A stretch of 32,734 nucleotides of DNA, taken from NCBI GenBank assembly GCA_023137255.1, contig JAGLPR010000128.1, forward strand, positions 1-32,734. Reading direction: 5' to 3'. This document shows positions 282 through 9,782 of the stretch, piece after piece. Under the pieces are notes generated by a model. That model was not told the origin of the DNA. It ran no database searches and was given only the letters and a program-made list of their open reading frames with translations. A program made the position numbers and the translations under genes. Every line of letters begins with the position of its first letter. The first letter of the stretch is position 1. Source of the stretch: Bacteroidales bacterium (GTDB lineage Bacteria > Bacteroidota > Bacteroidia > Bacteroidales > GCA-2748055).

Positions 282-971
282 ATGCGGATCGACATTATTA
301 CGGTAATACCTCAATTGCTTGACGGACCTCTGACCCACTCCATCGTAAAGAGGGCCAGAGAGAAAGGACTTGTGGAAATTCACGTTCACGATCTCAGGGA
401 CTTTTCTCTGGACAAGCACCGGAGGGTGGATGATTATGCTTTTGGCGGGGATGCCGGCATGGTCATGGCCATCGAACCGATCCAGAGGGCAATCTCGCAT
501 CTGACCTCACAAAGAAGCTACGACGAGGTGATCTATACCTCCCCGGACGGAAACAGTTACAACCAGCAGGAAGCCAATCGCCTGGCCCTCGCTGACAACA
601 TTATCATTCTTTGCGGACACTATAAAGGCGTGGATCAGCGGATTAGGGACCACTTGATCACACGAGAGTTCTCCATCGGAGATTATGTACTCACCGGAGG
701 TGAACTGGCTGCTGCGGTGATTACCGATAGTGTAATCAGGCTTCTTCCAGGTGCCATTTCAGATGAGACCTCTGCGCTTACTGACTCGTTTCAGGATGGA
801 TTGCTGGCTCCTCCTGTCTATACACGGCCGGCCGATTACCAGGGCTGGAAGGTGCCGGAAATACTATTGTCGGGGCATGCAGCCAAAATCGACCAGTGGA
901 AACATGAGCAATCGCTGGAACGAACACGTAAACTGAGGCCCGATCTGCTTGAAGGCAAGGAGGAGGATTAA
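282..971 (+). CDS. trmD: tRNA (guanine-37-N1)-methyltransferase TrmD
   Basis: TrmD uses S-adenosylmethionine to methylate N1 of G37 next to the anticodon, preventing +1 frameshifting. The 229-residue product has the family's usual length and begins [17 protein letters not shown]. The SPOUT trefoil-knot signatures are visible: [13 protein letters not shown] early, [13 protein letters not shown] in the middle, and [14 protein letters not shown] followed by a V-R-L-LPG segment. The C-terminal part with [19 protein letters not shown] is typical of the family. The gene stands alone on the plus strand and its stop lies one base from the stop of the convergent channel gene, leaving no room for a separate terminator. 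Confidence 0.97.
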
Positions 972-972
972 T

Positions 973-2715
973 CTATCGCAATACTTTCCGCACAAAAGCT
1001 ACTGTAAAATAGGACATCAGGAACAGTCCGAAAAATCCTTCAATGGCTGAGACCCAGCGAACCGCACCAAAAGGGTAGTGATCACCGTAACCTATGGTAA
1101 GAAATGTAATGGCACTGTGGTAGAAAGACCTGGCCACCATGGAGAGATGATCATCTACAGAGGCCACAATATCGGCAGAGGTCTGCCACAGAAGCAGCAG
1201 GTAGATCAGGCTAAAAATAATGAAGCAGGTTAACATGGTAATCAGCACCCTTACCGGACTGGTGGCGTAGAGCCCGGCTTTGTCAAACAGACCCAGCTTG
1301 AACCAGTAGAGGGGATATTGATAAAGTCCGTTCACGCGCTTCTGTTTCACCGATTCGGTCAGATTGGCCTTTGATTCACACCTTTTGAATTCCACATAGG
1401 CGTAATCCTCCGAATTGTAAAGGCCGAGGTTCTTAAAATTCTCCTTCAGAATCCTGAACTGCTCAGCTCTGATACGATAACTACTCTGCAACTGGGAACT
1501 AATCAACCTTTTTACCTTGTTCCTGCTCCAGTCGATGTAGAGTCGGCCAATAAGCCGCATGCCAGCCATGTATAGTGTCTGTACCTCTGCTGAGAATTCA
1601 TGTGGATTCAGATCAATGATGTCCCGGATGATGGTATTGGACAGGTCAATGGTTTCACTCTGCTGAACCCTCAGGTCCACAAATCCATCGAGGTGACAAA
1701 AGCTGAGTGAGAGGGTGTGAAACCATGATTTATAGAAGCTTACCTTCTCAGGGCCGAAACTGGTGCGTTCGAAGCTCACATCCACATTTTCAAACATCAC
1801 CTCTTCAAAACTAAAGGTACCGGATCCCAACACAGCACGTTTAAAGCTGAATTTGCCGGAATCCATCTCACACTCATCGAACACCACCTCTCCCTCACCA
1901 AACAAAGACCGGTTGAAATTAATCCGTCCCGTCCCGAATTCCACGGTCCGGAAATCCACACGACCCTGTCCAAATTCGGTTCTTTCAAAACTGACATTTC
2001 CATCCTTAAAGGATGCAAAGTGAAAATCCACTTTTCCTGTACCAAAACGGGCCACCTTAAACGAGGCATCGTTGCTGCCAAAATCTGTATTGATGAAGTT
2101 CACATTGCCCTCAAGAAATTCAGTATTTACAAACGAGAGGCTGCCCGTACCAAATGAGGCGTACTGAAAATCTTTGGTCCCGTTTCCAAACCGGCAGTTC
2201 TTGAATGAAACCTCTGCAACATCGATAATCACATTTTTAAAATCGAAGTACCCCTCCGGAAAACGTGTGTTATGAAAAGTAACCTGTTCTGTTTTAAAGT
2301 GTGCAGCCTCAAACACAACATCTCCCCTGTTTATCCAGGCATCTCCGAGACTAAACTCTATCCCTTCAAATACTGCGTTTGAAAAATCGAGGCTTGCATC
2401 TCCACCAAAGAGGGAGTTCCTGGCTGTAAATCCATTCAGAACAACAACTTCCTTTTCATCCATGTTCCTGGTTAGTCTGTAGTCGCGAAGCGAAAATTTA
2501 TCTATAAAACAGTTGTCGAGGTTCAACTCCTCTCCCCTGTCAATGGCTTTGTAGATCTCCTTTTCACCCAGGTAACCCATCAGTTCGACCAAGGGTTTCT
2601 CTCTCTCCTCCACCAGGAAATGGATCAAAGCTGTTCCAGGAAATCTTCTCCCCGCATCAGTTTCAAATTTGAGTTTCTTGATTTCAGCTTTAAAGGAGGA
2701 GTGTCCCGGTATCAT
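973..2715 (-). CDS. pentapeptide-like repeat protein with C-terminal K+-channel pore
   Basis: The 580-residue protein has three parts. Residues 1-110 are soluble and unassigned. Residues 111-338 form 19 consecutive 12-residue units of pattern FxxxxFGxGxVx, likely a right-handed beta-helix related to pentapeptide repeats. The C-terminus has a membrane helix at about 488-510, a pore loop carrying TIGYGD at 540-545, and a second helix at about 554-575, the two-helix plan of Ion_trans_2 potassium channels. The selectivity signature is intact, so it should conduct K+ as a tetramer in the inner membrane, with the repeat domain in the cytoplasm. It lies 34 bases downstream of addB and may be cotranscribed. 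What the repeat domain senses is unknown. Confidence 0.85.
   Translation of the reverse strand: MIPGHSSFKAEIKKLKFETDAGRRFPGTALIHFLVEEREKPLVELMGYLGEKEIYKAIDRGEELNLDNCFIDKFSLRDYRLTRNMDEKEVVVLNGFTARNSLFGGDASLDFSNAVFEGIEFSLGDAWINRGDVVFEAAHFKTEQVTFHNTRFPEGYFDFKNVIIDVAEVSFKNCRFGNGTKDFQYASFGTGSLSFVNTEFLEGNVNFINTDFGSNDASFKVARFGTGKVDFHFASFKDGNVSFERTEFGQGRVDFRTVEFGTGRINFNRSLFGEGEVVFDECEMDSGKFSFKRAVLGSGTFSFEEVMFENVDVSFERTSFGPEKVSFYKSWFHTLSLSFCHLDGFVDLRVQQSETIDLSNTIIRDIIDLNPHEFSAEVQTLYMAGMRLIGRLYIDWSRNKVKRLISSQLQSSYRIRAEQFRILKENFKNLGLYNSEDYAYVEFKRCESKANLTESVKQKRVNGLYQYPLYWFKLGLFDKAGLYATSPVRVLITMLTCFIIFSLIYLLLLWQTSADIVASVDDHLSMVARSFYHSAITFLTIGYGDHYPFGAVRWVSAIEGFFGLFLMSYFTVAFVRKVLR
1702..2385 (-). repeat. 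19 tandem 12-residue coding repeats (FxxxxFGxGxVx)
   Basis: The segment encodes residues 111-338 of the channel protein. Read in frame it falls into 19 units of exactly 12 residues with no indels, for example FERTEFGQGRVD, FRTVEFGTGRIN and FNRSLFGEGEVV. Phe is nearly invariant at unit position 1 and very frequent at position 6, while Gly is common at 7 and 9 and a hydrophobic residue usually occupies 11. The repeats have diverged at DNA level, so this is a protein-level repeat and not a recent DNA duplication. The F-to-F spacing resembles Pentapeptide_3-type repeats but with a longer period than I recall for them. Confidence 0.9.
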
Positions 2716-2749: not shown

Positions 2750-5623
2750 TCATTCAATGGAATTCCGGCTGCAGAGCGCTGCAAAATCACAATAGCTGCA
2801 TTTCTGGTCATTTTCCCTTTGGGTAAAAGGAGTGTCAGGATCATACAAGCGCTGAAGCACACCCTTCAACTGCTCCAGGAACTCCTCCTCAAGCTCACCA
2901 AATGAATCAACTCTTCCCCCCTGACCACCACTCTTCATCACCAGGGCCGGATCGAACTGCTCCCCGAAAAGAGCTTTCATGATATAGAGTCCGGGCAGAA
3001 TCTGTTCACCAGGATAGGAAGCATCGACGAGCCATGCATAAAGCAGAGTTTGCATGGCAGCCGCATTCCTGCTTCTTTGACCGGTGTCAAAAAGCGATTC
3101 CAGGGAGGGAAATTCCTGGCTTGCACCACCTGTTTTATAATCAATGACACGCAGAACGTTCCCCACTCTGTCGACCCTGTCGATTTTGCCTCCAAGACGG
3201 ATCACCAGGGGGCCTTTACCGGTCTCTATTTGCAGGCTCCTTTCGAAACGATCTTCAGCAGACACCAGTGTAAACGGAGCCATGGAAAGGTCCGTATGAA
3301 TAATCTTCACCAGGTAGCGTAACATGACCTGGAACATGATGATGTTCCTGCCCTCCAGTTTTCCTCTTTTTCTTCCCCTGAAGTGATGCCTGATAAATAC
3401 CTCCCGGAGCACGCGTTCAGCCTGATCGGAATGGACAAGGGCCTTTAACTCCTTGATGGTAATCTGCTGATTGTTCCTCTCAGCAATCTCAGTGTACAGG
3501 AGTTGCAGCGTATCGTGTACTACAGTACCAAAACCAGCCGCACCGATCTCCTCCTCTACTTGATCAGGTTCTCCGATACCAGCCAGGTACCGCAGGTAGA
3601 ATTTCAGTGAACAATCGATGTAGGTATTGATGGCCGAAGGTGAGAGGTACCGTCCATTCTCCTGATCCAGGATATAGACTTCAAGCTTCTTATCAATCTC
3701 CTGGGTGTGATCCACCTCCACAGGCGGAATCTCCCTGGTTTTAACTTCCAGGCCAGGTCTGATTACGCCGGTGCCCCTTTCAAAGATCACCTGGTGGAGG
3801 TACCGGCTCATCTCCCCAGATTTTACACCCTCAGACCCGCTGTTATACAGAAGATCGACCTTTTCGGCACGTTGAAGCAGCCGATAGAAGTAGTAAGCGT
3901 AAATAGCATCCATATCCTCTCGCGCAGGCATGTGGAACGCCAGACGGAGGGAATAGGGGATGTTGGATTGTGATGTATGGGAGGCAGGCATCGTCTCCTC
4001 GTTCATGGAGAGCAGGATCACATGCCGGAAATCGAGCAGCCGGGTCTCCAGGATTCCCATGACCTGTAATCCGGAAAGCGGTTCCCCCTCAAAAGGGATC
4101 CGAAGGCCCGTAAGAGTTTTCCTGAGCAACCTTTCCAGAATGGCCTTAGTGATGGAAGGCCTTTGTATCAATAATGTATCCAGTTTATTCAAATGGGTCA
4201 GCAAACGGAAAATAAATTCACGATCCAGTGCTGTCTGCATCTGCTCTTCCAAACCGGCAAGCTGATCCAGGATGAGGTTAAAGATTTCCCGGAGGTAATC
4301 TACCAGTCCGGAGGCCCGTTCCACAGAGCGAAATATCCTTTGCTCCAACTCCCCTGTAAATAGATTTTGCTCCACCATGATCAGGTTGCTTTTCAGAATC
4401 TCGGCGGTGAGTTCACCGGCGGAGTTACCAGCTATCTTCCTGAAGTAAGGATGGAGAAGGATAGCCATTACATCCTTGTGATAGAAAGAGATCCCTCCCT
4501 CTCGGACCGGTCTGACATGGTGGTGCAAGCGAAGCAGAGCATCGGTAAAACTAAATACCGGTGTATTCTTCATGGGATATCCCATGGTCACATTGATCTC
4601 TTCAGTATCCCCTGGAAGGGACATCAGGACCGGCAGCAGCAACTCCTCATCGCATAGCACCACTGCTGTATCGGTACAATCCCGTGGAGATTCCGCTCCT
4701 CTCCCTTCCATGATCCTGTGTACTGTTTTGGCCTGAAGCACATCGGTGGGGAGCTCAAAGATCCTGATCTCCTTCTTCCTGTCCAGACCCCTGAAATCCT
4801 CAAGTTCAGCAGCTTGAGGAAATAGTCTCAGGTTCTCTCTCAGAAATCTCCCTGCTTCGCTGCGCTGGTCGCCAACATACCGCTTATCATAATCCCAGTA
4901 AAACTCTGCCCCGTTGTTCTGCAACCAGGCAAAAATTCGTTTCTCACATCGGTTGAGCGCATTGAAGCCTGCCACAATAGTCCTCCCTTCCCAGCCATGC
5001 TCCATCTCTCCCTCTGCGATCCGTTCAGCGATCTCCCGGTACTGCATTCCCTGGTAAGCTCTGCCCCTGGAAAAGAGCTCCTTCCTGAACCGGCCATAGA
5101 TCATGGGAAGAAGGTTCCAGTTAAGCAAAAACTCCTCCTTCTCACGGGTCTGCTCGCCCGAATGGAAACCCGTCCAAAACTGCCGGATAAATTCAATCTG
5201 ATCCTGTTCAAGTCCGGCCAGGGGCTCCTCAAGTGCTTTCAGATCCATGATGTTGGTAAACAACATCTCGGCATCCACCAGGTATTTGTCCAGCTCATCA
5301 AAATCCCTGATCATTGTTTCACCCCGGTGGTAGAACTCGTCCAGTGTGGAGGGCTGGTCCACCAGCTCCTGGTAAATATCGCACAGAGCAAAGAGCAGTT
5401 CCACCGGTTCACCATGTTCCAGCTCACTGATCTCATTAATAAAATCGGTCATGGAGAACACAAGGGGGGCCCACCCTACCTTCGCGCTATGCACTGCAAG
5501 ATGCCTCTGCAGAAAAAGTCCGGCCCGCCGGTTGGGCAGGATAATGCGTGTCCTGCCCAGCAGATCCGGATCGCTACCTGAAAGGTGTATAGCCAGTGTT
5601 TCAAGTATGGGCTGTTGCATCAA
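2750..5623 (-). CDS. addB: AddB-like subunit of a helicase-nuclease, with PD-(D/E)XK nuclease and Fe-S staple
   Basis: This 957-residue protein is the likely AddB-type partner of the AddA protein encoded upstream. The N-terminus (RIILPNRRAGLFLQRHL) resembles the inactivated helicase start of AddB and has no Walker A lysine. The C-terminal nuclease begins near SPSAINTYIDCSLKFYLRYL and carries the catalytic signature RVIDYKTG. A cysteine in the first motif together with CSYCDFAALC (C-x2-C-x5-C) near the C-terminus matches the four-cysteine 4Fe-4S staple of AddB nucleases. The complex resects double-strand breaks to feed RecA. The start at 5623 overlaps the stop of the radical SAM gene by four bases. 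It could be annotated simply as a PD-(D/E)XK nuclease family protein. Confidence 0.9.
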   Translation of the reverse strand: MMQQPILETLAIHLSGSDPDLLGRTRIILPNRRAGLFLQRHLAVHSAKVGWAPLVFSMTDFINEISELEHGEPVELLFALCDIYQELVDQPSTLDEFYHRGETMIRDFDELDKYLVDAEMLFTNIMDLKALEEPLAGLEQDQIEFIRQFWTGFHSGEQTREKEEFLLNWNLLPMIYGRFRKELFSRGRAYQGMQYREIAERIAEGEMEHGWEGRTIVAGFNALNRCEKRIFAWLQNNGAEFYWDYDKRYVGDQRSEAGRFLRENLRLFPQAAELEDFRGLDRKKEIRIFELPTDVLQAKTVHRIMEGRGAESPRDCTDTAVVLCDEELLLPVLMSLPGDTEEINVTMGYPMKNTPVFSFTDALLRLHHHVRPVREGGISFYHKDVMAILLHPYFRKIAGNSAGELTAEILKSNLIMVEQNLFTGELEQRIFRSVERASGLVDYLREIFNLILDQLAGLEEQMQTALDREFIFRLLTHLNKLDTLLIQRPSITKAILERLLRKTLTGLRIPFEGEPLSGLQVMGILETRLLDFRHVILLSMNEETMPASHTSQSNIPYSLRLAFHMPAREDMDAIYAYYFYRLLQRAEKVDLLYNSGSEGVKSGEMSRYLHQVIFERGTGVIRPGLEVKTREIPPVEVDHTQEIDKKLEVYILDQENGRYLSPSAINTYIDCSLKFYLRYLAGIGEPDQVEEEIGAAGFGTVVHDTLQLLYTEIAERNNQQITIKELKALVHSDQAERVLREVFIRHHFRGRKRGKLEGRNIIMFQVMLRYLVKIIHTDLSMAPFTLVSAEDRFERSLQIETGKGPLVIRLGGKIDRVDRVGNVLRVIDYKTGGASQEFPSLESLFDTGQRSRNAAAMQTLLYAWLVDASYPGEQILPGLYIMKALFGEQFDPALVMKSGGQGGRVDSFGELEEEFLEQLKGVLQRLYDPDTPFTQRENDQKCSYCDFAALCSRNSIE

Positions 5624-6564
5624 TCTGATTTAAAGTGTTTGCCCTGCCAGCTGTCATGTTTTTCGAGCAACTCTTCAAAAGCACGCAGCACAGCATCGTA
5701 TCTTTTCCCCCATCCCTCTCTCAATCCCATTCCCGGATTTACCTCTCCGGCGATGCGCTCCACCACGAAAGCAGGATTGAGTCTTTCCAGCATCTCCATC
5801 ATCAGCTGCAGATAGCTTTCCATGGTAAACTCCTCAAAATCGCCGGGACTTTCTACATATTCCTGCGCCATAACGGTCCCTTTAATAAGCTGAAGCTGGT
5901 GGAACTTAATGCTGCTCAGCGGCCATGTTGAAACCAGATCTGCTGCTTCCAGAAAATCTGTCCTGCTCTCGCCCGGCAACCCGACAATCATGTGTCCACC
6001 CACACGAATTCCCCTTCGGGCCGTCTCCTGAATTTCCCGGAGACTCGTCTCTACATCGTGCCCGCGGTTCACCCGCTCCAGGGTCCTGTTTAATACCGAT
6101 TCGATGCCGTACTCCACCACCACATAACACCGCTGTGAGAGCTCCTGGAAAAAATCGAGTTTCTCCCCGTCCACGCAATCGGGCCTGGTACCCACCACTA
6201 TTCCGATTATTCCGGGAACCTCGAGTGCTTGCTCATACAATGCTTTCAGCTCATCCAGTTCGGCATACGTATTGGAATATGCTTGAAAATAGGCCAGATA
6301 CTGCGTGGCTTTCCTGTATCTCTTCCTGTGAAATGCCATTCCCTGCAGAATCTGGTCGCTGACCGACTTCTCAGGATGGTTGTACGAAGGGTTAAAAGCC
6401 CTGTTGTTGCAGAAGGTGCAACCTCCCCTACCGCAGGTTCCGTCACGGTTGGGACAGGTAAACCCGGCATCAATGGTAATTTTCTGAACCCTTTGTCCGA
6501 AATGCTTCCGGAAATAGTCGCTGTACGCATTCAGTCTTCGTTCTGTGCCCCAGGGATAGATCAT
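5620..6564 (-). CDS. YhcC-type (TIGR01212) radical SAM protein
   Basis: The 314-residue protein starts MIYPWGTERRLNAYSDYFR. It carries FTCPNRDGTCGRGGCTFC, the characteristic cluster-binding region of the TIGR01212/YhcC family, in which the cysteines hold the radical-SAM 4Fe-4S centre. GGHMIVGLPGE later in the protein is a typical SAM-domain strand. The substrate of this family is not known to me. The gene overlaps addA (ATGA at 6561-6564) and addB (ATGA at 5620-5623) by four bases each, so all three are very probably one translationally coupled unit. That placement suggests, without proving, a link to DNA repair. The length is normal and no damage is seen. Confidence 0.92.
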   Translation of the reverse strand: MIYPWGTERRLNAYSDYFRKHFGQRVQKITIDAGFTCPNRDGTCGRGGCTFCNNRAFNPSYNHPEKSVSDQILQGMAFHRKRYRKATQYLAYFQAYSNTYAELDELKALYEQALEVPGIIGIVVGTRPDCVDGEKLDFFQELSQRCYVVVEYGIESVLNRTLERVNRGHDVETSLREIQETARRGIRVGGHMIVGLPGESRTDFLEAADLVSTWPLSSIKFHQLQLIKGTVMAQEYVESPGDFEEFTMESYLQLMMEMLERLNPAFVVERIAGEVNPGMGLREGWGKRYDAVLRAFEELLEKHDSWQGKHFKSD

Positions 6565-9500
6565 GATGTCTCTATTTTTACAGTAAGGTCGAGCATCACA
6601 TACCAGAGGTATCCCTCCACCCTTTTGAATCCCATTTTTTTCAGTTGCTCCATATAATTGCTAACCTGCCTATGGTAGGAGGGTTTCTCCAATTCACCGA
6701 ACTTAAAATCGACTACCGTAGCCCGATCTCCCTCCACAATCACCCTGTCTGGTCGCAACACCTCCCCCTCACTGCAGAGCAGGCTCCGTTCCTTGAATAT
6801 GGTTCCCGATCCTGATGGAGAGAACCAATCAGATATCCCCTTCCGGCCAATCATCTCCCGCACATTTTCAGCCAGCAATTCACGCTCCTTTTCAGGCAGA
6901 AGCCCCTCCCTGTGCAGGATATCCACCGCCCGATCCACATCATCTACGGTATCGATCTTTGAAAAGAGCTGATGCATCATGTTGCCATACATTCTGCCGG
7001 TCCTGAATACTCCCTCCTCATCCACAAAATACTGATCGCTGCGCAAGCGCACCTTCAGCAGTCGTTTTCCCCTGTTCACAGGATAGGTCACAAACTTCCA
7101 GGGATCTTCCTTCTCCGGTTCAGACTTATAGCGGGGCATTTTCCCAAGCGAAATCACCTGGCCCTTCATTGAAGTTTTCAGGGCCCCTGTACAGGGTTGC
7201 TCACCGGGATGCTGATCCAGAATGACCTGCATCAGGTCCCCGGTATTCTTCACTCCTTTTACCTCCCTAAGCGGGATTCCGATATAGAGCATATCCCTGG
7301 CTCTGGTAAACGCCACATACATCAGGTTCAGGCGATCCATATACCCTTTCATCCGCTCGGTATAATAGGCCCCGGAAAACAGGGTGGTTGACATTTTTGA
7401 ACTGAAACGTACCGGAACCACCGGGATCCGCTCCAGGGGGGTACCTGAAGTTTTGCACCAGAGTATGTTGATGTTCCTGGCATCTGTGGTCAGGTCCCAG
7501 TCACAGAAAGGGACTACCACTGCCTTGAACTCCAGTCCCTTGGCCTTATGAATGGTAATGATCCTGATGGCATTGGATGTTTCAGAGAAGGAGATGCTTT
7601 TTCCGGCACCGGTCTGCTCCCAGTATTCAAGAAACTCCCCGATCCCCACCGGTCCCCTGCGCTGCAGATCAATGACCAGATCCTGAAGTGCCTGAAGATA
7701 GGGCAGCTCATCCGGGCGGTTCCCAAGACCCAGCAGGTCGATCATGCTCTCGATCAACTCAAACAGGGGTAGCTGTTTAAGCAAGTTCTGACGCGATATG
7801 AAATCGTCTGACAGAAGTTCTTCCGGGGTGAGATCGTTTTCGAGCAGACGCCCGGTCCCTATCCCCGAAATCAATCCCGCCTGGCAGGCGTGATACTTCA
7901 GCAGGGCATTGTTGATCTCGTTGTCGGGATAGAGCAGGTAGCGCAGCGTGGATATAAGCAGCGATACCGCTGTGTTGTACCCCAGAAGAAGCGAATCGTT
8001 GGAAACCAATCTGAACTGCCGGTCATTGCCACTGCTCCTGGCATGCTCCAGCAGCTTGTTGGCCACTGCAATCCCTTCCTTCCTGGTCCGGACCAGGATC
8101 GCAATTTCACCAGGTTCGATCCCTGTTTCCAGAATTTCGTCTACCCAGGCAGGCAGTTCATGAAGCACCTGCTCCCTGAAGGGCGTCTCCTCTGTATCAA
8201 ACATCTCTGCCCTTACTCTGCCACCTGTGCCCTGCAGGTGATCGGGAATCTGCTGCACCACATCTTTCCATGCGCTCCTGAACCGGTTCACCTCCATGTC
8301 GGCCTCCTCTCTGTGTGCAGAGGAACCATGCAGCTCATCTTCAATAATCTCTGAAAGCAACCGGGAGGAGAGCTGGAAAACGGTATTGTTGAACCTGACC
8401 ACCTGTTCCCTGCTTCGATAGTTCTCCTTCAGCGGTTCCACATGGATCTCCTGATGACCAAAATCGGCTTCCAGCTCCGAGGCCAGGATTTTCCAGTCGG
8501 AGTTTCTCCAGCGGTAGATGGACTGCTTCACATCCCCAACCACCAGACTTTGCTCCCCTGCCGCCAGTGAGTTATCGAGCAGTGGCCTGAAGTTGTCATA
8601 CTGAAACAATGAGGTGTCCTGAAACTCATCCAGCATGATGTGACTGAAGCGATTCCCAGTCCTCTCATAAACAAACGGTACCTGGTTCCCTCCAATAATT
8701 CCTCTTAAGAAGCGACCCGAATCTGCAATCAGAAACAGGTTGCGCTCACTGGTATAGTTTTGCACATACTCCCTGATATCGCCCAGGATCCCGAGTGCGT
8801 AGAAATTGGCACGGACCGCGGCAATAGTGTTCAGTGTTTCCTGGTGGCCATAGATCTGATTAAGCAGGGGAATCAGCTGCTCGGTCGTTAGAATCTCCAT
8901 CGCTTCAGAAGCTCCTTTTTTAAGCCACTTTTCGGCTTGCTCCAGTGCTGCGATTTTCGAAGCAGTAAAATCAATATCCTTCCCATCCCTGGCGGATACA
9001 AAAATGGTAGCAGGTGACCTGCCGGCTCCTTTGAACTCTTCCGGAGTAACTCCCTGCTTCACAATATGACCCAGAGCCTGAGTTGCTATACCCATCATCC
9101 CCTGGCGGGCCTGCTCCTCCAGTTGCCTCAAATCGGCCAGGAAAAGATCCAGATGACTCTTCTCCAGCAATGCAAAGTCGTTTTGCAGGAACAACTCCTG
9201 GAAGGATTCCTTGAAAAGCTGTTCTCCCAACTGAATCATCTCACGCCTGAAATCCCAGGAGAGCGAACTCTCCATGCGCTCCATGGCATAACGAATAAGC
9301 CACTTCTGAAGCTCCGGATGGTTTCCAAGGTCCTGGAACAGGCTGTCCACTGCCAGCGAGAGTACCCTCCGGTGGTCCAGTTCCAGGTTATATCCGGGCT
9401 GGATCCCAATCTCGTGAGTGAAGGCACGTATCACCGACTGAAAAAACTTATCGATGGTCCCCACCGAGAACCCGGAATAGTCGTTGAGAATTTCATGGAG

Positions 9501-9782
9501 CAACTCCCCGGCCCTGCGGCTGATGATCAATTCATCCAGTCCGGTGGCCTCTTTAAGTTGTTTCATCTCCTCGTCGCATCCTCCTTCGGCGGGCCTGGAG
9601 AGACAGTGAAGCCTGCCCAGGATCCGCTGCTTCATCTCCCCTGCAGCCTTATTGGTAAAAGTAACTGCCAGGATGTGGCGGTGAATGCCCGCACGCGCAT
9701 AAAGCAACTTCAGGTAGGCCAGGGTCAGGGCGAAAGTTTTTCCTGATCCTGCAGAAGCCTTATATATGTTCAGGGGGGACAT
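6561..9782 (-). CDS. addA: AddA-like UvrD/RecB-family helicase-nuclease
   Basis: The 1073-residue protein is a superfamily 1A helicase fused to a C-terminal nuclease. All helicase motifs can be read in order: Walker A ASAGSGKT near residue 10, LDEFQDT (motif II), VGDVKQSIYRWR (III), LKENYRS (IV), ITIHKAKGLEF (V) and YVAFTRARD (VI). The C-terminal part has MYGNMMHQLF, LRPDRVIVEGD and VVDFKFGE, the H, D and D-x-K elements of an active RecB-like nuclease. It should unwind and cut DNA ends together with AddB, 0.9 kb downstream. The start at 9782 begins MSPLNIYKASAGSGKT and faces mnmA across about 60 bases. No frame damage is visible. Confidence 0.95.
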   Translation of the reverse strand: MSPLNIYKASAGSGKTFALTLAYLKLLYARAGIHRHILAVTFTNKAAGEMKQRILGRLHCLSRPAEGGCDEEMKQLKEATGLDELIISRRAGELLHEILNDYSGFSVGTIDKFFQSVIRAFTHEIGIQPGYNLELDHRRVLSLAVDSLFQDLGNHPELQKWLIRYAMERMESSLSWDFRREMIQLGEQLFKESFQELFLQNDFALLEKSHLDLFLADLRQLEEQARQGMMGIATQALGHIVKQGVTPEEFKGAGRSPATIFVSARDGKDIDFTASKIAALEQAEKWLKKGASEAMEILTTEQLIPLLNQIYGHQETLNTIAAVRANFYALGILGDIREYVQNYTSERNLFLIADSGRFLRGIIGGNQVPFVYERTGNRFSHIMLDEFQDTSLFQYDNFRPLLDNSLAAGEQSLVVGDVKQSIYRWRNSDWKILASELEADFGHQEIHVEPLKENYRSREQVVRFNNTVFQLSSRLLSEIIEDELHGSSAHREEADMEVNRFRSAWKDVVQQIPDHLQGTGGRVRAEMFDTEETPFREQVLHELPAWVDEILETGIEPGEIAILVRTRKEGIAVANKLLEHARSSGNDRQFRLVSNDSLLLGYNTAVSLLISTLRYLLYPDNEINNALLKYHACQAGLISGIGTGRLLENDLTPEELLSDDFISRQNLLKQLPLFELIESMIDLLGLGNRPDELPYLQALQDLVIDLQRRGPVGIGEFLEYWEQTGAGKSISFSETSNAIRIITIHKAKGLEFKAVVVPFCDWDLTTDARNINILWCKTSGTPLERIPVVPVRFSSKMSTTLFSGAYYTERMKGYMDRLNLMYVAFTRARDMLYIGIPLREVKGVKNTGDLMQVILDQHPGEQPCTGALKTSMKGQVISLGKMPRYKSEPEKEDPWKFVTYPVNRGKRLLKVRLRSDQYFVDEEGVFRTGRMYGNMMHQLFSKIDTVDDVDRAVDILHREGLLPEKERELLAENVREMIGRKGISDWFSPSGSGTIFKERSLLCSEGEVLRPDRVIVEGDRATVVDFKFGELEKPSYHRQVSNYMEQLKKMGFKRVEGYLWYVMLDLTVKIETS

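What the first reader, a model, noticed from the sequence alone, without database searches (positions are those of the whole stretch)
973..2715. K+-channel pore joined to a 19-unit, 12-residue beta-helix repeat
The repeats keep a strict 12-residue period with no indels over 228 residues, with Phe at positions 1 and 6 of each unit. Classical pentapeptide repeats have a five-residue period, and the Pentapeptide_3 arrays I recall have an eleven-residue F-to-F spacing. The domain is attached to an intact TIGYGD pore, suggesting an unusual cytoplasmic gating or scaffolding module.
Basis: partly seen in the sequence, partly recalled or inferred. Interest (0 to 1): 0.5.

Follow-up and report, generated by a model that had tools for sequence, protein, structure and literature searches.

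The report
Pentapeptide-type solenoid potassium channel in Bacteroidales
This gene encodes a bacterial potassium channel carrying a long spring-like repeat domain on its inner end; the repeat is a known type, but this conserved channel family, often encoded beside DNA-repair genes, appears unstudied.

Summary
A 580-aa ORF (973-2715, minus strand) has 19 gap-free 12-residue units (residues 109-336) and a C-terminal 2TM pore with a TIGYGD filter. A confident AlphaFold2 model (pLDDT 89.6) gives a four-sided solenoid with two units (24 residues) per coil. The claim that the 12-residue period is unusual fails: Streptomyces "pentapeptide repeat-containing proteins" have the same F+5/F+7 period and score to 2.9e-32 against Pfam Pentapeptide_3, as do 22 of 54 relatives of this protein (best 5.9e-16). 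Pentapeptide-repeat + K+-channel fusions are already annotated in plasmids, and one fold neighbour is HalA, the DNA-inhibited channel of Hailong phage defence. What remains new is the subfamily: 55 of 295 genomes of the order, none of about 390 sampled outside it, a length-locked solenoid, a conserved linker, and no domain after TM2, so regulation can enter only through TM1. The gene lies downstream of addB in 25 of 65 genomes (10 families), but without a HalB-type partner in the contexts examined. Best reading: an N-terminally gated K+ channel with unknown cytoplasmic ligand. Bold reading: an AddAB-linked, DNA-responsive relative of HalA.

The parts
973..2715 (-). ORF, 580 aa, solenoid K+ channel
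   Evidence: full-length relatives
2536..2715 (-). N-terminal cap, residues 1-60: three strands and a helix in the model
   Evidence: AlphaFold2 model
1516..2535 (-). beta-solenoid, residues 61-400, with four short strands per 24 residues
   Evidence: AlphaFold2 models pLDDT 89.6 and 94.1; 24-residue rows
1708..2391 (-). 19 x 12-residue Phe-rich repeats, residues 109-336
1258..1515 (-). helical linker, residues 401-486, with conserved L-K-E-N-F, E-D-x-A-Y and D-K-x-G-L-Y-A-T segments leading into TM1
   Evidence: invariant columns Q419 L423 K424 G431 E436 D437 Y440 R445 D478 G481 T485; helices
1183..1257 (-). TM1, residues 487-511
   Evidence: helix in model; Ion_trans_2
1081..1140 (-). pore helix and selectivity filter TIGYGD, residues 526-545 (filter 1081-1098)
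979..1062 (-). TM2, residues 552-579; the protein ends one residue later
2750..5623 (-). addB-like gene (PDDEXK_1 nuclease), directly upstream, 34 nt from the channel start; frequent neighbour of the channel
   Evidence: Pfam; linkage
5620..6564 (-). radical-SAM gene between addB and addA
   Evidence: Pfam
6561..9782 (-). addA-like gene (UvrD-type helicase)
   Evidence: Pfam
282..971 (+). trmD, convergent neighbour on the other side (used as a synteny control)
   Evidence: Pfam

Best explanation
It is a 2TM K+ channel (tetrameric by analogy) whose only cytoplasmic regulatory part is an N-terminal, length-fixed, pentapeptide-type beta-solenoid. Two 12-residue units (5+7) make one 24-residue coil. 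The solenoid ends in a conserved helical linker that runs into TM1, and only one residue follows TM2, so any cytoplasmic signal must reach the gate through linker and TM1. Shown by sequence and prediction: repeat, coil length, linker conservation, pore signature, absence of a C-terminal domain. Inferred: K+ conduction, tetramer, that the solenoid gates, and that its conserved polar corner residues (unit positions 4-5, residues about 169-276) bind a ligand or a neighbouring subunit.
For: Ion_trans_2 match in 54 of 54 aligned relatives. T[IV]GYGD in 54 of 54, but the set had been chosen with a filter pattern; of two full-length relatives that the filter dropped, one reads TAGYGD and one TVGYGE. 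All 54 end in [IV]LR right after TM2, as do the two dropped ones. DSSP shows four short strands per 24 residues, repeated. Solenoid length locked: 147-347 is 201 aa in 45 of 54, while one clade of 16 carries 82-84 extra residues (about 7 units) at the tip far from the membrane. The linker holds about 10 invariant residues. The exposed position after the first Phe is the most conserved exposed non-glycine position (mean 0.60 and 0.64, against 0.26-0.36 at positions 7 and 10; residues 220, 232, 244, 256, 268 at 0.8 or more). A classical pentapeptide channel from another Bacteroidota genome shares lead-in and pore (hhalign 97.4%).
Against: No measurement of conduction, oligomer or gating. No multimer prediction was possible. 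Alternation between odd and even units is not visible in sequence profiles (lag-2 residual correlation 0.031 against 0.002 at lag 1), so the 24-residue coil rests on the models. addB is not the neighbour in 40 of 65 genomes, so no single pathway is implied.
Confidence: 0.6

Rival explanations
1. HalA-like DNA sensor: the solenoid binds DNA or nucleotide oligomers, and the channel responds to the state of AddAB-processed DNA, acting as a guard against DNA damage or phage.
For: HalA (9nyi) is the top Foldseek PDB match of the full model, E 9.7e-5. A Priestia plasmid pairs a pentapeptide-channel gene, 4-nt overlap, with a nucleotidyltransferase that matches HalB in the PDB, E 0.007. addB lies directly upstream in 25 of 65 channel genomes, 18 within 200 nt, in 10 families, spread over the tree with at least 7 changes.
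Against: TM-score to HalA is low (0.37 by target, rmsd 9.4), and the solenoid-linker model alone gives HalA only rank 9, E 0.025. No sequence match of solenoid or linker to any PDB chain at E<=10. No Pol-beta-type nucleotidyltransferase among the neighbours examined. addB linkage may be slow decay of ancestral gene order: unrelated convergent trmD is also kept in 11 of 39 loci. The 16-member long clade has no addB neighbour.
Confidence: 0.12
2. The solenoid is a docking scaffold that places the channel beside a partner protein, with little effect on gating.
For: The functions of most pentapeptide-repeat proteins are unknown and several known ones act by binding other proteins (review PMC8145042, passages seen). 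The long clade sits downstream of a DUF6272-SiaC fusion in five genomes of two families, which suggests a signalling partner.
Against: The strongest conservation lies in the linker, the lead-in to TM1 and the pore, as expected for coupling to the pore; no partner gene is shared by the whole family.
Confidence: 0.22
3. The pore no longer conducts and is only a membrane anchor for the solenoid.
For: No functional data exist.
Against: Filter signature kept in all 54 aligned relatives (set chosen with a filter pattern) and, with one substitution each (TAGYGD, TVGYGE), in the two full-length relatives left out; Y532, T540, G542, Y543, G544, D545, P548 are invariant in the 54.
Confidence: 0.04

Closest known systems
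Pentapeptide_3 (PF13576) proteins of Streptomyces with a 12-residue F+5/F+7 unit
   Same: Same unit length and pattern (V-S-F-x-x-A-x-F-x-x-G-x); BLASTP 33% identity over 286 residues with 10 gap positions; Phe lag 12 = 41 in the same protein
   Different: The three Streptomyces proteins scanned carry no Ion_trans_2 match and their arrays are far more uniform
Pentapeptide-repeat K+ channels annotated in haloarchaea, Priestia and found in Bacteroidota (for example L155, L151, L080)
   Same: Order N-terminal solenoid, linker, lead-in (GYGxxPxR against LYATSPVR), 2TM pore, end just after TM2
   Different: Theirs are short classical five-residue repeats in proteins of 287-368 aa; the profile comparison aligns only lead-in and pore, not the solenoid
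HalA of Hailong anti-phage defence (PDB 9nyi)
   Same: Fold match across the full-length model (Foldseek E 9.7e-5). One paper describes poly-dA adducts of HalB blocking the HalA ion channel (PMC13275509, passage seen)
   Different: No HalB-type gene beside this family in the contexts examined; present along the tree of one order; no sequence match of the solenoid. The primary paper (PMC12360457) is not held, so HalA anatomy is otherwise recalled
Right-handed beta-helix enzymes and tailspikes (Sf6 tailspike 2vbk, 4urr)
   Same: VIA-align Z 22.7, rmsd 4.0 over 321 residues; Z 22.0, rmsd 3.5 over 299 residues
   Different: About 9% identity and no functional link; a common solenoid arrangement

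Membership tests
Pentapeptide repeat superfamily (Pentapeptide_3, PF13576) | Profile match, family level | tested here: met
   22 of 54 members match at E<=10, best 5.9e-16
Pentapeptide repeat superfamily (Pentapeptide_3, PF13576) | Profile match, window protein itself | tested here: inconclusive
   hmmscan gives none at E<=1 or E<=10; the genome search gives 21.6 bits, 28 with its neighbours in the frame against a cut-off of 27
Pentapeptide repeat superfamily (Pentapeptide_3, PF13576) | Small or aliphatic residue at i-2, Phe/Leu at i, recurring | tested here: met
   V/I/L at position 1 before F3; A/T/S/V at position 6 before F8
Pentapeptide repeat superfamily (Pentapeptide_3, PF13576) | Strict five-residue unit, 20 residues per coil | tested here: not met
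   5+7 unit, 24 residues per modelled coil; the same 12-residue period occurs in Streptomyces proteins that do match PF13576
Pentapeptide repeat superfamily (Pentapeptide_3, PF13576) | Right-handed quadrilateral beta-helix | tested here: inconclusive
2TM K+ channel (Ion_trans_2, PF07885) | Profile match above the curated cut-off | tested here: met
   36 bits against 22.5
2TM K+ channel (Ion_trans_2, PF07885) | T-x-G-Y-G selectivity filter | tested here: met
2TM K+ channel (Ion_trans_2, PF07885) | K+-selective conduction as a tetramer | not testable with these tools
   no experiment, no multimer prediction
Hailong HalA | Fold similarity to 9nyi | tested here: inconclusive
   E 9.7e-5 but TM 0.24/0.37 and rmsd 9.4; rank 9, E 0.025 without the pore
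Hailong HalA | Adjacent HalB nucleotidyltransferase | tested here: not met
   window neighbours and the scanned neighbours of other loci hold no Pol-beta-type nucleotidyltransferase; not every neighbour ORF was scanned
Hailong HalA | Binds DNA oligomers that hold the channel shut | not testable with these tools
   experiment needed

The most novel reading that the evidence does not exclude
A vertically inherited sister of the Hailong effector HalA: a K+ channel whose pentapeptide-type solenoid senses DNA ends, oligonucleotides or nucleotides made or removed by the AddAB recombination nuclease in whose operon it lies, so that damage to or inhibition of AddAB is turned into membrane depolarisation.
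Probability: 0.1. Interest if true: 0.75.

Novelty: new variant of a known kind. Interest (0 to 1): 0.36.

Why it matters
Most well-known gated 2TM K+ channels carry their cytoplasmic sensor after TM2 (RCK, CNBD, Kir C-terminal domain; recalled). This family, like other pentapeptide channels, puts it only before TM1 and ends at the gate, so it is a clean system for asking how a rigid solenoid moves TM1. Recurring placement beside addAB, and the fold likeness to a DNA-inhibited defence channel, make a testable link between DNA processing and membrane potential.

Tried and rejected
Rejected: that the 12-residue period is new. Rejected as evidence: SpoIIE genes near the channel, because these genomes hold 13-89 SpoIIE matches each (28 genomes); likewise SiaC domains are many (3-23 per genome, 28 genomes), so only the DUF6272-SiaC fusion directly upstream is noted. 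Led nowhere: PDB profile search with the solenoid and linker (0 hits at E<=10); PDB search with the Priestia channel did not list HalA at E<=1; paper searches for pentapeptide repeats joined to K+ channels, for Hailong with pentapeptide, for AddAB with K+ channels and for 12-residue pentapeptide solenoids gave nothing on this family in the listings shown. HalA is not among the 50 VIA-align rows shown, which excludes nothing. A 12-residue coil was considered and set aside because the modelled strands alternate with a 24-residue period. The Knotted Solenoid paper (PMC13123833, passages seen) concerns Brevundimonas proteins with triangular coils, not this family.

Rows dropped: the 54-row alignment holds ORFs over 560 aa that matched a T[ILMV]GYG[DN] pattern; L020, L031 and L061 (short or cut) and L024 and L028 (other filter letters) were left out and inspected; fragmentary relatives from five genomes (G297, G300, G307, G309, G313) were not counted in the 65 genomes. 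L143 gave no channel in the neighbourhood script, so neighbourhood counts are of 39 loci out of 40 fetched. addB matches counted as neighbours include partial ones at contig ends (for example G305), and the channel of G014 is a partial match at such a place. Four channel genomes had no addB match.

Full report
What is there. Window 973-2715 on the minus strand encodes a 580-aa protein. Residues 109-336 form 19 gap-free 12-residue units; Phe is at unit position 3 in 18 of 19 and at position 8 in 15 of 19, far beyond shuffles. Residues 506-578 match Ion_trans_2 and hold the filter TIGYGD. The protein stops at residue 580, one residue after TM2.

The family. In 295 genomes sampled from the window's order, 71 had some match at E<=0.001; 55 had a match better than 1e-60 (counted from the table), the others being mostly pore-only matches. 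In 395 genomes drawn across the phylum only the window's own genome matched over the whole profile; the other listed matches begin at profile position 423 or later, that is linker end and pore (the weakest matches are not listed there). Within the window's own family 15 of 28 genomes match, several only as fragments. Fifty-four non-redundant long ORFs were aligned (selection rules). Identity to the window protein runs from 75% down to 35%. The records name the carriers as Bacteroidales or Bacteroidia MAGs; that the order is Bacteroidales is inferred from these titles.

Length is locked. Residues 147-347 are 201 aa in 45 of 54 rows, 200 in 7, 199 in 1 and 202 in 1. One clade of 16 carries 82-84 extra residues, about seven units, near residue 141, at the end far from the membrane. 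Seven units would be three and a half coils, so only the distal tip could be turned relative to the rest.

Fold. AlphaFold2 with 54 sequences gave mean pLDDT 89.6 and pTM 0.78 for the whole protein, and 94.1 and 0.87 for residues 60-485. DSSP shows four short strands in every 24 residues, so two 12-residue units make one four-sided coil. Foldseek on the solenoid-linker model ranks the pentapeptide proteins EfsQnr, MfpA and a Clostridium protein first, but weakly (E 6e-3 to 1e-2). VIA-align gives Z near 22 to right-handed beta-helix tailspikes, a common arrangement. Full length, the best Foldseek match is HalA, 9nyi (E 9.7e-5, TM 0.24/0.37, rmsd 9.4).

Is the period unusual? No. A tblastn of the window protein against plasmids found 73 records, 65 of them Streptomyces; most of the 25 listed are annotated 'pentapeptide repeat-containing protein'. 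Three that were fetched have Phe lag-12 counts of 29, 49 and 41, with 5/7 spacing, and match Pentapeptide_3 with E 5e-21, 5.1e-29 and 2.9e-32. In this family 22 of 54 members match Pentapeptide_3; the window protein itself reaches 28 bits only when neighbouring matches in the frame are summed, against a cut-off of 27, and hmmscan lists none.

Is the architecture unusual? The kind is known from annotation. A classical pentapeptide channel from another Bacteroidota genome (L080) matches Pentapeptide, Pentapeptide_4 and Ion_trans_2 and finds 16 plasmid records, mostly haloarchaeal, most of them annotated pentapeptide repeat-containing. One, on a Priestia megaterium plasmid, overlaps by 4 nt a nucleotidyltransferase gene whose product matches HalB in the PDB at E 0.007; the channel protein matches Pentapeptide_4 and Ion_trans_2. 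So a Hailong-like pair carries a pentapeptide channel. The present family aligns with these channels only in lead-in and pore (hhalign 97.4% and 91.8%). A 2021 review of pentapeptide repeat proteins holds no occurrence of 'channel' in its text.

Where the conservation sits. Invariant columns lie in core Phe residues, in the linker (Q419, L423, K424, G431, E436, D437, Y440, R445), in the lead-in (D478, G481, T485, P487, R489) and in the pore. Among exposed non-glycine repeat positions the one after the first Phe is most conserved, with K220, H232, E244, R256 and N268 at 0.8 or more. These would form polar ladders at opposite corners of the solenoid, candidates for a ligand or subunit interface (inference).

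Neighbourhood. In the window the order is addA, radical SAM, addB, channel, all on one strand, with trmD convergent. Of 65 genomes with the channel, addB lies upstream on the same strand within 5 kb in 25 and within 200 nt in 18, over 10 families; 4 had no addB match. On the channel tree 20 of 54 rows are addB-linked, needing at least 7 changes, with linked rows in several deep branches (quick tree, some weak forks). Control: the functionally unrelated trmD is kept beside the channel in 11 of 39 loci against addB in 17 of 39, so part of the linkage is slow decay of gene order. Where addB is absent the neighbours scanned are varied and give no common partner. In the long clade a DUF6272-SiaC fusion lies directly upstream in five genomes from two families.

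Reading. The best-supported account is a K+ channel gated, if at all, through its N-terminal solenoid, linker and TM1. The ligand is unknown. The DNA-sensing reading draws on the HalA likeness and the addAB linkage; it is kept at low probability because the fold match is loose, no sequence match exists in the solenoid and no HalB partner was seen. All functional steps are inference.

Noticed in passing
L151:2812-4415 (NZ_CP065336.1, Priestia megaterium plasmid): Pentapeptide K+-channel gene overlapping by 4 nt a Pol-beta nucleotidyltransferase gene that matches HalB at E 0.007: a Hailong-like pair.
   Followed up: partly
L137:6466-8007, L138, L140, L144 and L071 (upstream of the long-clade channel): A DUF6272-SiaC fusion gene directly upstream of the channel in two families; L137 also has a polyphosphate kinase gene just downstream of the channel, with a related ORF in L138.
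   Followed up: partly
28 channel-bearing genomes of the order: 13 to 89 SpoIIE-type phosphatase matches per genome, a large partner-switching repertoire together with 3-23 SiaC matches.
   Followed up: no
L128 and L129, between addB and the channel: A 1331-aa ORF stands between addB and the channel in two genomes; it clusters with a PAS-histidine kinase ORF.
   Followed up: no
G000:C40:15095-15325 (L145, L150): A second Pentapeptide_3 protein (206-aa frame) elsewhere in the window's genome.
   Followed up: no
L077:418-1812: Another Bacteroidota K+ channel with an irregular repeat-like N-terminal domain that no Pfam repeat model matches.
   Followed up: no
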